Assembly (NCBI RefSeq): GCF_000368145.1
Contig: NZ_KB849283.1
Span: forward strand, 1,452,324 to 1,516,323
Source: Acinetobacter guillouiae CIP 63.46
GTDB taxonomy: Bacteria > Pseudomonadota > Gammaproteobacteria > Pseudomonadales > Moraxellaceae
Reading direction: 5' to 3'
DNA: 64,000 nt
Below are positions 11,953-18,738 of the stretch, piece by piece. Each line of letters starts with the position of its first letter. Position 1 is the stretch's first letter. Below the pieces are notes generated by a model. It saw nothing but the letters and a program-made list of their open reading frames with translations. It searched no databases and was not told where the DNA came from. The translations under genes and the position numbers were made by a program.

Positions 11953-12996
11953 TTACACATCCAATAAATTTAGCGATTCAACCTGTACATCACTCATCGT
12001 ATTGCCTTGTTCTAGCAAGTGATTAAAGTAATCCTCAACGACTTTTGCTTGTGCTACAGTGCTTTCCACTTTGTACATATTTTGACGGAATTCATTACTT
12101 GAGTGCAAACCTTTGGTGTACCAAGCAATATGTTTACGTGCAATTCGACAACCGGAGTATTCACCATAGAACTGATAAAGTTCAGACAAATGTCCCAATA
12201 ATACGTGTTTTACTTCTTGAATATCTGGCGCCGCTAAGTATTCACCTGTTTTTAGATAATGAGCAATTTCACGAAAAATCCACGGACGCCCTTGGGCTGC
12301 ACGTCCAATCATGACGGCATCAGCACCAGTATAGTCCAATACATATTTGGCTTTCTCTGGACTGTCGATATCACCATTGGCAATTACAGGAATAGTGAGC
12401 ATCTGTTTGACTTCTTTAATCAAACTATAACGTGCTGTATTTAAATACATATCCTCACGAGTCCGACCATGTAAAGCTAAGGCTGCAATTCCTGCTTCTT
12501 CTGCTCGTTTCGCCACACGGATAATATTCTCATGACCATTTAAAAAACCTAACCGCGTTTTTAACGTCACAGGCACATCAACTGCTTTTACCACTGCATC
12601 TAAAATTCGGGCAACCAAATCTTCATCTTTCAGCAATGCCGAACCTGCCAATTTATTACAGACTTTTTTTGCTGGGCATCCCATATTGATATCAACAATT
12701 TGCGCACCATTTGCAACTTGATAACGTGCTGCTTCAGCCAACTGATCTGGTTCAGAGCCTGCAATTTGTGCTGAAATCGGCGCTAATTCACCATCAAAAT
12801 TTGCCCGATATAGACTCTTTTTGGTCATACGTAAGGTCTGATCAGAGGTCATCATTTCACTTACCGCATGCCCAGCACCAAAGTATTTGCACAGTGTCCT
12901 AAACGGACGGTCTGTGACTCCGGCCATAGGTGCGACCCAAAGTTTCTTATCTATTGATTTATCAAACAATTCTGTAATAACGTTGTTTTGACTCAA
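11953..12996 (-). CDS. dusB: tRNA-dihydrouridine synthase B with a replaced N-terminus
   Basis: 347-residue FMN enzyme reducing a uridine in the tRNA D-loop with NADPH. LWVAPMAGVTDRPFRTLC (residues 19-36) and INMGCPAKKVCNKLAGSALL carry the flavin-site motif and catalytic Cys; GADAVMIGRAAQGRPWIF is the phosphate loop; the C-terminus has the Dus helical domain. The first 18 residues (MSQNNVITELFDKSIDKK) differ from the usual bacterial DusB start, whereas a fragment at 18634-18738 carries a normal one. I infer that an integrated element supplied this 5' end and hence the current promoter. The reading frame is intact, so the enzyme should be functional. Confidence 0.94.
   Translation of the reverse strand: MSQNNVITELFDKSIDKKLWVAPMAGVTDRPFRTLCKYFGAGHAVSEMMTSDQTLRMTKKSLYRANFDGELAPISAQIAGSEPDQLAEAARYQVANGAQIVDINMGCPAKKVCNKLAGSALLKDEDLVARILDAVVKAVDVPVTLKTRLGFLNGHENIIRVAKRAEEAGIAALALHGRTREDMYLNTARYSLIKEVKQMLTIPVIANGDIDSPEKAKYVLDYTGADAVMIGRAAQGRPWIFREIAHYLKTGEYLAAPDIQEVKHVLLGHLSELYQFYGEYSGCRIARKHIAWYTKGLHSSNEFRQNMYKVESTVAQAKVVEDYFNHLLEQGNTMSDVQVESLNLLDV
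12917..12941 (-). other. att-like site inside dusB (near end of island)
   Basis: Codons for VAPMAGVT inside dusB align with the displaced fragment at 18681-18705. The two copies share CCTATGGC exactly (8 bp) and otherwise differ mostly at third codon positions, as expected if one 5' end came from a different lineage. Taken as the recombination crossover region. Confidence 0.6.
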
Positions 12997-13099
12997 TTTC
13001 TGTGACCTCTTTAAACTTCTTTGAATCGCCTGTTATTGACTTCTAATGCTCATTTGTTGCACTTTATTTGCACCGCAAAATATTTATGATGCAATTTGC

Positions 13100-13617
13100 A
13101 TGGGTACAGCGACTAGATAGTCAATAAAGATGGTACTTTGTGTTATGGTACCTAAATATGCTTACAACGTGAAAACTATCCACCTATGCAGTTTTAAAAA
13201 ACTTTCAGCAAAAAATCATTAGCTGATGAGTGGATTAAAAGAACTGAAGCTGAAATCGAATTAAACCCAGAAATGATGCTCAATCCAAAAGAAGAACTAA
13301 AGCATCGTACTTTGGTCGAGTTTATTCATAAGTATTTAGAAGAAGCGGATAGTTTTGCACGGACTAAGACTGGTGCACTTACTACTCACATTGCTAGTTT
13401 AGAGATTTCTGAGAAAAATATCTATTCCTTAACTCGTCAAGATTTTTCAGAAAATGTTATTTCACTTCGTAAGGGCGAACCATTGAAAGGTGTAGATGGT
13501 GTTGCTTCAACTACTACTTTAAAAGATATGAGTTATATTAAAGTGGTAGTTGTTTATGCTGAGTATGTTTGGCTGGTTAAACCTTTCACCATGCAAAATC
13601 ATACACATACATAATAA
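13100..13617 (+). pseudogene. Tyrosine-type integrase remnant (N-terminal half only)
   Basis: One frame reads NKDGTLCYGT-stop-ICLQRENYPPMQF-stop-KTFSKKSLADEWIKRTE, the arm-binding N-terminus of a phage-type integrase (compare RKGYPxQxKTFxxKSLAEEW), broken by two TAA stops. The open part from 13273 continues into the SAM-like core-binding domain (RTLVEFIHKYLEEADSFARTKTGALTTHIASLEIS...). The catalytic domain with Arg-His-x-x-Arg-Tyr is missing; the frame ends soon after VVVYAEYVWLVK. It sits immediately inside the left att-like site, where an integrase gene is expected. Non-functional by any reading. Confidence 0.7.
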
Positions 13618-13974
13618 TTAAAAATTTATAAAGGACATATCACATTCACTCATCGGAACAATCCTATGTTTTTTCGACCAAATTCCTTCAGTGGTAAGCT
13701 GCCCATTTTTACCAAACTGCCCCCTAATCACATTATCATTTTTAGTAATTCATAAAATTTTATTGAACTTTTTAAAATTTGCTTCTAATCGCCATAGAGC
13801 TAGATGATCCCCCAATAAAAATATTTCCGAGAATGATAGGAATTCGATTATAGGAAGACCATTTTTTGAATGATAAATTTTAGATACAAACTTAATTATT
13901 CTAAATTGAATTTATAAACAATAATTTAATATGAATTTACACATAAATTCTTATAAAAACTAGACTACATAAAA
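13618..13974. other. Intergenic region inside the island
   Basis: About 360 AT-rich bases between the integrase remnant and the RHS promoter region. A patch near 13660-13730 is less AT-rich and reads coherently on the reverse strand (GQFGKNGQLTTEGIWSKKHR), perhaps a trace of another element, but I cannot assign it. Confidence 0.35.
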
Positions 13975-13993
13975 GCAAATGATTATCATTACC
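13975..13993. promoter_or_regulatory. Candidate Fur box upstream of the RHS gene
   Basis: GCAAATGATTATCATTACC matches the 19-bp Fur consensus (GATAATGATAATCATTATC) at 15 positions and contains the perfect 6-1-6 palindrome AATGAT-T-ATCATT. The same 13 bases occur in the hemP Fur box of this window. It ends 56 bases before the RHS start codon, where a repressor would block transcription. Confidence 0.6.
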
Positions 13994-14049
13994 ATCAAGG
14001 TGTTTCAACATTACAACTTACTCAATTATTAAATATAAGGTAATAAAAC

Positions 14050-18159: not shown

Positions 18160-18491
18160 TATGGTTTAACGCATTTTTGTTCTTTTTAATTTTTTGTTTA
18201 TATTTTATGTTTATAGTATATGTATATTCAAAAATTCTTGTGGATATAAGCCACAAAAAAGGCTTAATAAAAGATTTAATGGGAATAATTGTTTATCTAC
18301 TCATGATTCCTTTCTTTGGAGCTCCACTGATTATTGGATCAGAAATTAATGGCTATAGGGAATTGATATCTAAAAATAATTATTATTTCTTTTTTAATCT
18401 AATCTGTTTTGCTCTTTCACTATTGCCTGGGATTCTTGTTTTTAACAAGTACTATTTAAAGAAAGCTAAAAGAAGAAATTTTAGGTATTAA
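18156..18491 (+). CDS. Small membrane protein, candidate immunity protein for the RHS toxin
   Basis: 111 residues if started at ATG 18156, which overlaps the RHS stop codon as ATGA and has AGGA 9 bases upstream; ATG 18147 would add three residues but abuts the AGGA. Three predicted membrane helices (about 4-25, 42-62, 77-97) are joined by a Lys-rich loop, and the C-terminus is strongly basic (KKAKRRNFR). I know no family for it. Translational coupling to the RHS gene, small size and location immediately after the variable C-terminus are the hallmarks of a cognate immunity gene, and a membrane location would suit a membrane-acting toxin. The role is inferred. Confidence 0.65.
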   Translation: MIWFNAFLFFLIFCLYFMFIVYVYSKILVDISHKKGLIKDLMGIIVYLLMIPFFGAPLIIGSEINGYRELISKNNYYFFFNLICFALSLLPGILVFNKYYLKKAKRRNFRY

Positions 18492-18515
18492 ATAATAGTG
18501 AATTTTGATTAAATT

Positions 18516-18555
18516 AGAGAGTGAATTTATAATTAATTTCACTCTCTATTTTTTT
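18516..18555 (+). terminator. Intrinsic terminator of the RHS operon
   Basis: Stem AGAGAGTGAA / TTCACTCTCT around a 12-base loop followed by seven T residues. Confidence 0.85.
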
Positions 18556-18633
18556 GCTCTTAGATACTATTTTTTAAGATCTATCGAAAAATCTTGTATT
18601 TACTGCACCATATTTGCGCCTTACACCAAAAAA

Positions 18634-18738
18634 TCAATCCAACCACTTAATATTTAATAAAATCACCAAAACATCTATTACACCAGCCATAGGCGCAACG
18701 ATTAAATTATTTGACAGTTGATAAGGACCAATATACAT
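18634..18738 (-). pseudogene. Displaced native 5' end of dusB (attR-like scar)
   Basis: An ATG-started 34-codon frame whose first 22 residues read as a normal DusB N-terminus: IGPYQLSNNLIVAPMAGV resembles E. coli DusB (MRIGQYQLRNRLIAAPMAGITDRP). Homology stops directly after APMAGV-ID, where intact DusB continues TDRPFR, and the frame ends 12 codons later. It lies on the same strand as dusB and marks the far boundary of the island. It could still drive transcription from the old dusB promoter into the island. Confidence 0.75.

What the first reader, a model, noticed from the sequence alone, without database searches (positions are those of the whole stretch)
12917..18738. A genomic island inserted in the 5' end of dusB, with the native dusB start stranded 5.7 kb away
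The present dusB begins MSQNNVITELFDKS..., unlike typical DusB, while a reverse-strand fragment at 18634-18738 reads like a normal DusB start (IGPYQLSNNLIVAPMAGV) and loses homology right after APMAGV-ID. Both copies share CCTATGGC. Between them sit an integrase remnant, the RHS gene and its partner. This is the scar expected when an element recombines into the gene, supplies a replacement 5' end and displaces the old one. Such use of dusA is established; dusB as a target is something I have not seen described.
Basis: partly seen in the sequence, partly recalled or inferred. Interest (0 to 1): 0.8.

Follow-up and report, generated by a model that had tools for sequence, protein, structure and literature searches.

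The report
Decayed mobile island overwriting dusB start
In this Acinetobacter genome a 5.8-kb insert, most likely the stuck remains of a virus-like mobile element, has replaced the first 20 codons of the tRNA-modifying gene dusB and left the old start at its far end; 74 of 175 species genomes of the genus carry the same kind of swapped start, and this kind of insertion was already described in one A. baumannii strain.

Summary
Relative G058 has MYIGPYQLSNNLIV-APMAGVTD joined directly to DUF1615. The window's far end matches that site up to the APMAGV codons, its near end only from those codons onward. A 20-bp core (16 of 20 identical) bounds a 5,763-bp insert with element-type repeats at both ends. 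An integrase remnant sits where 18 other genomes have a full-length open integrase beside dusB. Of 175 genomes of the genus, 74 have an element-type dusB start; in the 59 with both genes on one contig DUF1615 is never at the native distance. Of 101 native-type genomes, 98 have it within 434 bp. A viral contig shows the predicted phage-side junction. Farrugia et al. 2015 (PMC4482086) already reported a dusB-specific island in A. baumannii ACICU with 19-bp sites and an alternative 5' end. So this is a new, decayed member of a known kind. Added here: the genus-wide count, starts that outlast their integrase, and loci apparently overwritten more than once (G097, G075).

The parts
11953..12996 (-). 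dusB (tRNA-dihydrouridine synthase B) in its present form; native body from 12936 downstream
   Evidence: ORF; Pfam Dus PF01207 E 1.1e-99
12937..12996 (-). element-donated first 20 codons with presumed TTG start; GAGGT Shine-Dalgarno-like stretch just upstream (by eye)
   Evidence: no match to the empty site of G058 (33 of 65 columns); same family of starts in all 57 islands read, the window included, all open in frame
12917..12936 (-). att core at the dusB side
   Evidence: 16 of 20 identical to 18680-18699; homology to the empty site begins here
13058..13093 (-). right-arm repeats (GGTGCA at 13074-13069; changed copies at 13093-13088 and 13063-13058)
   Evidence: 14 of 14 integrase-bearing islands inspected have such repeats at constant offsets 59 and 70; the window keeps one exact copy
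13123..13615 (+). remnant of a dusB-type tyrosine integrase: residues 9-158 of 532 aligned, 2 TAA in the aligned stretch, catalytic part absent
   Evidence: 69% identity; same place as integrases of other islands; PF00589 lies at residues 210-365 of the intact relative
14050..18159 (+). RHS-repeat protein, 1369 aa (cargo)
   Evidence: PF05593 E 1.4e-44, PF03527 E 1.2e-7
18147..18491 (+). small hydrophobic partner protein, 114 aa, overlapping the RHS stop
   Evidence: ORF; relative at 82% identity about 0.9 kb from the RHS relative in G031; best Pfam match DUF6219 is under its cut-off
18604..18627 (-). left-arm triple repeat GGTGTAA-GGCGCAA-ATATGGTGCA
   Evidence: only match in 64 kb, 0 in 100 shuffles; same spacing in 11 island far ends and viral contig L325
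18680..18699 (-). att core at the DUF1615 side
18680..18738 (-). displaced native dusB 5' end (MYIGPYQLSNNLIVAPMAGV)
   Evidence: matches the empty site of G058
18739..18821 (.). native dusB/DUF1615 intergenic region with the palindrome AGTATACT at 18767-18774, a possible shared -10 region (inferred)
   Evidence: GTATACTA in 14 of 14 native sites and 45 of 60 far ends, 1 of 59 and 0 of 59 in two control stretches
18822..20030 (+). DUF1615 gene, the native upstream neighbour of dusB
   Evidence: PF07759 E 3.3e-112; within 434 bp of dusB in 98 of 101 native-type genomes

Best explanation
The 5.8-kb stretch between the two cores is most likely the immobilised remnant of an integrative element (prophage or genomic island) whose tyrosine integrase recombined it into the APMAGV codons of dusB, so that dusB now starts with about 20 codons and a presumed TTG start supplied by the element while the native start lies at the far end beside DUF1615. 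Shown: the empty site, the two junctions, the core, the arm-type repeats, the integrase remnant, and many parallel cases. Inferred: that the integrase made the insertion by site-specific recombination at the core; that the element also supplied dusB's promoter; that it cannot leave now because the integrase has lost its catalytic part; and that the RHS gene with its partner is a passenger, possibly a toxin-immunity pair. Open: whether DusB amount or activity changed.
For: Empty site in G058 and the abrupt change of homology at the core on both sides. Start type and DUF1615 adjacency go together: in 59 of the 74 element-type genomes both genes are on one contig and none has the native distance (smallest upstream gap 391 bp); 98 of 101 native-type genomes have it within 434 bp. 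In the genus, full-length open integrases of at least 53% identity lie next to dusB in 18 of 18 cases. The window remnant is 69% identical to one of this clade and in the same place. Left-arm repeats with fixed spacing occur in the window, 11 island far ends and a viral contig, and in none of the other loci among 392. Viral contig L325 has a donated 5' end joined to the element's left end, the expected attP (or a tandem junction). 22 of 24 IMG/VR loci carry this integrase at 63% identity or more. Donated codons are open in 57 of 57 islands read, uncorrected pN/pS 0.28-0.44. None of 62 readable non-Acinetobacter DusB starts is of the donated type (12 more could not be read).
Against: The integrase is broken, so mobility cannot be tested here. 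The window's left junction reads GGTGTAATAGAT where several relatives read GGTGGGATAGAT, so either the exchange point or later mutation differs. The right arm keeps only one exact repeat. No promoter could be shown: the scan found 6 sites against 6.6 expected. For 15 of the 74 element-type genomes the distance cannot be measured (separate contigs). Nothing ties the RHS gene to the element: none of 89 fetched dusB-locus stretches has it or its partner, so the cargo may have come later.
Confidence: 0.95

Rival explanations
1. The N-terminal difference is an old sequence variant of DusB, and the 18634-18738 fragment is an unrelated or duplicated piece; no element was inserted.
For: Element-type starts are common in the genus, 74 of 175, including divergent dusB genes such as that of G148 (79% identity).
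Against: Of 62 readable starts outside the genus none is of the element type and most resemble the native one; the start type follows DUF1615 adjacency; the label changes at least 18 times on the dusB tree of 100 genomes, at least 10 forced by well supported branches; both window ends match one empty site.
Confidence: 0.02
2. The RHS locus was brought in by homologous recombination with a relative that already had an occupied dusB, so this genome's own lineage never met the mobile element.
For: The island is short (5.8 kb), its integrase is broken, and many species carry occupied dusB loci that could act as donors.
Against: No other dusB locus with this RHS gene was found: none in 89 fetched stretches (834,639 bases); the relatives in G031, G016 and G007 are in genomes with native-type dusB starts and the one in G081 is on another contig than dusB (one search scored at most 3 candidates a genome). 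This rival changes the route of arrival, not the origin of the scar.
Confidence: 0.2
3. Assembly artefact joining two dusB-bearing contigs.
For: The genome is a 16-contig draft.
Against: The locus lies inside a 2.34-Mb contig; one match to the dusB protein at E 1e-60 is found in the genome; many other genomes show the same architecture.
Confidence: 0.01

Closest known systems
dusB-specific island of A. baumannii ACICU (Farrugia et al. 2015, PMC4482086)
   Same: Insertion in the dusB 5' end, short repeat sites (19 bp there, a 20-bp stretch here), element-supplied alternative 5' end, integrase related to the dusA-associated family
   Different: The ACICU island excises (PCR in the paper); the window's copy has lost the integrase's catalytic part. 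The ACICU sequence itself was not compared here.
dusA-specific genomic islands and prophages with DAI integrases (same paper)
   Same: Same strategy: target codons in the 5' end of a dus gene, replacement 5' end supplied, old 5' end displaced
   Different: Target is dusA. In one search the relatives of 52% identity or less align at most to residue 397, whereas the dusB clade goes on for about 135-150 residues more; of those relatives only the one in the window's own genome was checked to lie beside dusA
RHS-repeat proteins (PF05593)
   Same: RHS repeats and RHS core motif, small gene directly downstream
   Different: Signal-like N-terminus (judged by eye), no PAAR or VgrG domain among the Pfam matches; function untested

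Membership tests
dus-specific integrative elements (Farrugia et al. 2015) | Insert lies in the 5' end of a dus gene | tested here: met
   Junctions against the empty site of G058
dus-specific integrative elements (Farrugia et al. 2015) | Element supplies a replacement 5' end | tested here: met
   Donated 20 codons, same family in 57 of 57 islands read and in viral contig L325
dus-specific integrative elements (Farrugia et al. 2015) | Original 5' end displaced to the far end | tested here: met
   18680-18738
dus-specific integrative elements (Farrugia et al. 2015) | Short direct repeats as attachment sites | tested here: met
   20-bp stretch, 16 of 20 identical
dus-specific integrative elements (Farrugia et al. 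2015) | Integrase of the family next to the replaced 5' end | tested here: met
   Remnant only: 69% over residues 9-158 of a dusB-type integrase, at the conserved place. Kinship to the paper's own integrase sequence was not compared.
dus-specific integrative elements (Farrugia et al. 2015) | Catalytically complete integrase (bears on mobility, not on kinship) | tested here: not met
   Own-genome search aligns only residues 9-158 at this locus; the catalytic domain of relatives is at 210-365; hence filed as a decayed remnant
dus-specific integrative elements (Farrugia et al. 2015) | Excises as a circle and restores the native gene | not testable with these tools
   Needs PCR on cultures
RHS proteins | RHS repeats | tested here: met
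   PF05593, 6 stretches
RHS polymorphic toxin systems | Toxic C-terminal domain neutralised by the neighbouring gene | not tested
   Only gene order and hydrophobic character seen

The most novel reading that the evidence does not exclude
In Acinetobacter the start of dusB is effectively a mobile part: prophage-like elements overwrite it again and again, even on top of earlier scars, and because the donated leader mostly begins with TTG instead of ATG and is cut off from the promoter region shared with DUF1615, each overwrite resets how much DusB the cell makes, an effect that stays after the element has decayed.
Probability: 0.3. Interest if true: 0.65.

Novelty: new member of a known kind. 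Interest (0 to 1): 0.42.

Why it matters
The case is ordinary in kind but it opened a clear count: 74 of 175 species genomes of the genus have a dusB whose first codons are of the mobile-element type. For scale, and not like for like, Farrugia et al. counted 16 integrase hits at dusB and dusC together in 2015. Only 18 of the 74 have a full-length open integrase of this clade next to dusB (some of the other 56 end at a contig edge or may carry another recombinase), so the swapped start seems often to outlive the element and to stay under selection as part of a housekeeping gene. Gene callers and comparative studies that trust dusB start sites in this genus could misread them. The DUF1615-side stretch that keeps a promoter-like palindrome while the old codons decay makes a natural test of divergent promoter use.

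Tried and rejected
Promoter scan upstream of the donated start gave 6 sites against 6.6 expected and was not used. A first count of promoter-like motifs at native sites was wrong because half of the native loci were read in the other direction; it was replaced. In one search one of the two 'empty' references (G086) was in the wrong direction for the same reason; only G006 there is a valid reference. The idea that the donated N-terminus is the ancestral form was rejected by the starts outside the genus. The idea that the RHS gene belongs to all dusB elements was rejected: four of the other 174 genomes have a relative at E 1e-80 (at most 3 candidates scored a genome), none of them shown to be at dusB, and none of 89 fetched dusB-locus stretches holds it or its partner. 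Occurrence of the integrase beyond the genus: 10 of 292 other genomes drawn from the order match at E 1e-40, at most 38% identity; four of the ten fetched matches lie near a gene with a DusA-type motif, the other six were not resolved. The phage collection holds 27 records with a match, none covering 80% of the dusB-type integrase. Left out before counts: the far end of G045, not covered by the fetched stretch; three loci with native-type starts and inserts (G104, G115, G045) from the donated-start counts.

Full report
The observation. dusB occupies 11953-12996 on the minus strand and begins with a TTG codon and SQNNVITELFDKSIDKKLWV before APMAGVTD. At 18738-18680 on the same strand lies MYIGPYQLSNNLIVAPMAGV, after which dusB homology ends. 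The shared core is 12917-12936 and 18680-18699, 16 of 20 bases identical, so the insert measures 5,763 bp from core to core.

The empty site. Relative G058, whose DUF1615 protein is 96% identical and whose dusB is the window's sister on the dusB tree (SH-aLRT 86), has the native start. Its DUF1615-to-dusB stretch aligns with the window's far end up to the core (133 of 144 columns) and not beyond (35 of 68). The window's near end aligns with it from the core into dusB (69 of 87 columns) and not upstream (33 of 65).

The genus. A dusB match was found in 175 of 175 genomes; 150 rows were listed there and the other 25 genomes were searched by handle. By start type 74 of 175 are of the element type, with the N-terminus read in all 74 (66, 8). 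The other 101 are of the native type; the N-terminus was read in 51 of them (34, 17), the other 50 being called native because the match starts at residue 15 or 16. Of the 74, DUF1615 is upstream on the same contig in 48 (gaps 391 bp to about 122 kb), on the same contig but not upstream in 11, and on another contig in 15, where no distance can be given. Of the 101, 98 have it within 101-434 bp and 3 have inserts of 3.1, 9.5 and 19.8 kb. On a quick tree of the dusB body from 100 genomes (66 element-type and 34 native-type), the label needs at least 18 changes, 10 of them forced by well supported branches; shuffled labels average 28.3, so inheritance and repeated events both play a part. The count cannot tell gains from losses.

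The element. Full-length open integrases of at least 53% identity to the one in G097 number 18 in the genus, and all 18 lie 0.1-0.4 kb from dusB. Two more of 58% identity are incomplete or hold a stop (G109 C10, G009 C16). Relatives of 52% identity or less align at most to residue 397, so the dusB clade carries about 135-150 extra C-terminal residues. The window's remnant covers residues 9-158 at 69% identity with two TAA, in the same place relative to dusB. The catalytic Pfam domain of the intact relative is at residues 210-365, and the own-genome search found no counterpart of it at this locus. A survey at E 1e-40 would miss unrelated integrases, so islands without this clade may still have other recombinases.

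Arms and phage-side junction. Next to the far core, many islands have three GGTGCA-like repeats, starts 7 and 11 bases apart. The window has the same set at 18604-18627, its only match in 64 kb, none in 100 shuffles. Among 392 loci the spaced pattern is found in 15: the window's own genome (three overlapping loci), 11 island far ends and viral contig L325. Thirteen far ends, of the 60 in hand, were inspected because their junction was readable: 11 fit exactly, one (L117) in part, one (L103) not. Right-arm repeats are at constant places in 14 of 14 integrase-bearing islands looked at (of the 18); the window keeps one exact copy and two changed ones. In L325 the donated codons run into APMAGGLD and the left arm, the expected attP, although a tandem junction would look the same. 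22 of 24 viral loci carry the dusB-type integrase at 63% identity or more; 18 of these 22 begin at the integrase, as a provirus boundary would, and three of the other four reach into a dusB body.

What happens to the two starts. The donated 20 codons are open in 57 of 57 islands read (the window included), with uncorrected pN/pS 0.44 over all and 0.28 within 38 of one type. The codon at the presumed start is TTG in 49, ATG in 7 and GTG in 1 of 57, while the native start is ATG in 34 of 34. The displaced start is recognisable at 22 far ends and visibly decayed in 10 of these. At 60 far ends (two of them, G104 and G115, in genomes whose dusB start is native-type) GTATACTA of the intergenic region is kept in 45, the old start ATATGTAT in 39 and the codon stretch CTGTCAAA in 26; in 14 native sites these are 14, 13 and 13; two control stretches have 0 or 1 of 59. 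The likely reading, untested, is that DUF1615 still needs the promoter side and nothing protects the old codons.

Overwriting more than once. In G097 and G075 a fragment towards the DUF1615 end is not a native start but another donated start joined to the element's left end, 346 and 1,616 bases from DUF1615; G087 shows the same on a separate contig. Most simply, an earlier element's scar served as the target of a later one. G168 has two copies of the donated end 300 bp apart.

Cargo. The 1369-aa protein has RHS repeats (PF05593) and the RHS motif (PF03527); its 114-aa neighbour overlaps its stop and has no Pfam match over the cut-off. Relatives of both lie in G031, which has a native-type dusB start. 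None of 89 fetched dusB-locus stretches, 834,639 bases, holds either. A toxin-immunity role is possible and untested.

Known before. Farrugia et al. 2015 describe dusA-specific islands and, at lower frequency, dusB and dusC ones; A. baumannii ACICU has a dusB-specific island with 19-bp sites, excision seen by PCR and an alternative 5' end, and the Acinetobacter dusB integrases are said to be disparate from other integrases of close relatives (abstract and other passages by term search, and sections 13, 15, 18). Of PMC6070778 only passages were seen. In the window's own genome dusA also stands next to a broken integrase of this family with two TAG. Six searches of the open paper library listed no title or abstract opening that names a genus-wide count of dusB replacement; papers outside that library were not searched.

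Verdict. A real, well explained scar of a known kind. The extra value lies in the genus-wide count, the starts that outlast their integrase, and the repeated overwriting.

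Noticed in passing
G000 contig C4:2316014-2317174 (L235, L002), outside the window: dusA of the same genome stands next to a broken relative of the integrase (44% identity, two TAG), so both dusA and dusB of this genome appear to have been targets.
   Followed up: partly
L107 (G097), L121 (G075), L141 (G087), L124 (G168): Fragments towards the far end (in G168 near dusB) are earlier donated starts, not native ones: apparent serial overwriting of the same site.
   Followed up: partly
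L093 (G104) and L094 (G115), sister genomes: dusB has a native-type start and native-like upstream region although a decayed displaced start lies beside DUF1615; the native start may have been regained by recombination or captured by an element.
   Followed up: partly
L075, L076, L077, L078, L079, L080 (G010, G018, G113, G072, G023, G019): Six genomes share three ORFs (137-163, 424-433 and 661-664 aa) in a 4.5-4.7 kb dusB insert without the dusB-type integrase.
   Followed up: no
L116, L122, L124, L136, L143 against L104-L114: Integrase subtype, donated end and arm-repeat sequence tend to go together: MGTIAER proteins with PIFV/PVFV ends and GGCGTA/GGCGCA repeats, MGTVTKR proteins with KLWV/KIWV ends and GGTGCA repeats.
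   Followed up: partly
G151, G012, G091, G024, G119, G144, G099, G057, G079, G009, G003: DUF1615 lies on the same contig but not upstream of the replaced dusB, which suggests chromosome rearrangement across or around the island.
   Followed up: no
window 18767-18774: AGTATACT is a perfect palindrome between dusB and DUF1615, a candidate shared -10 region for divergent transcription.
   Followed up: partly
G000 contig C8:190556-193891: A second RHS gene (49% identity) elsewhere in the same genome.
   Followed up: no
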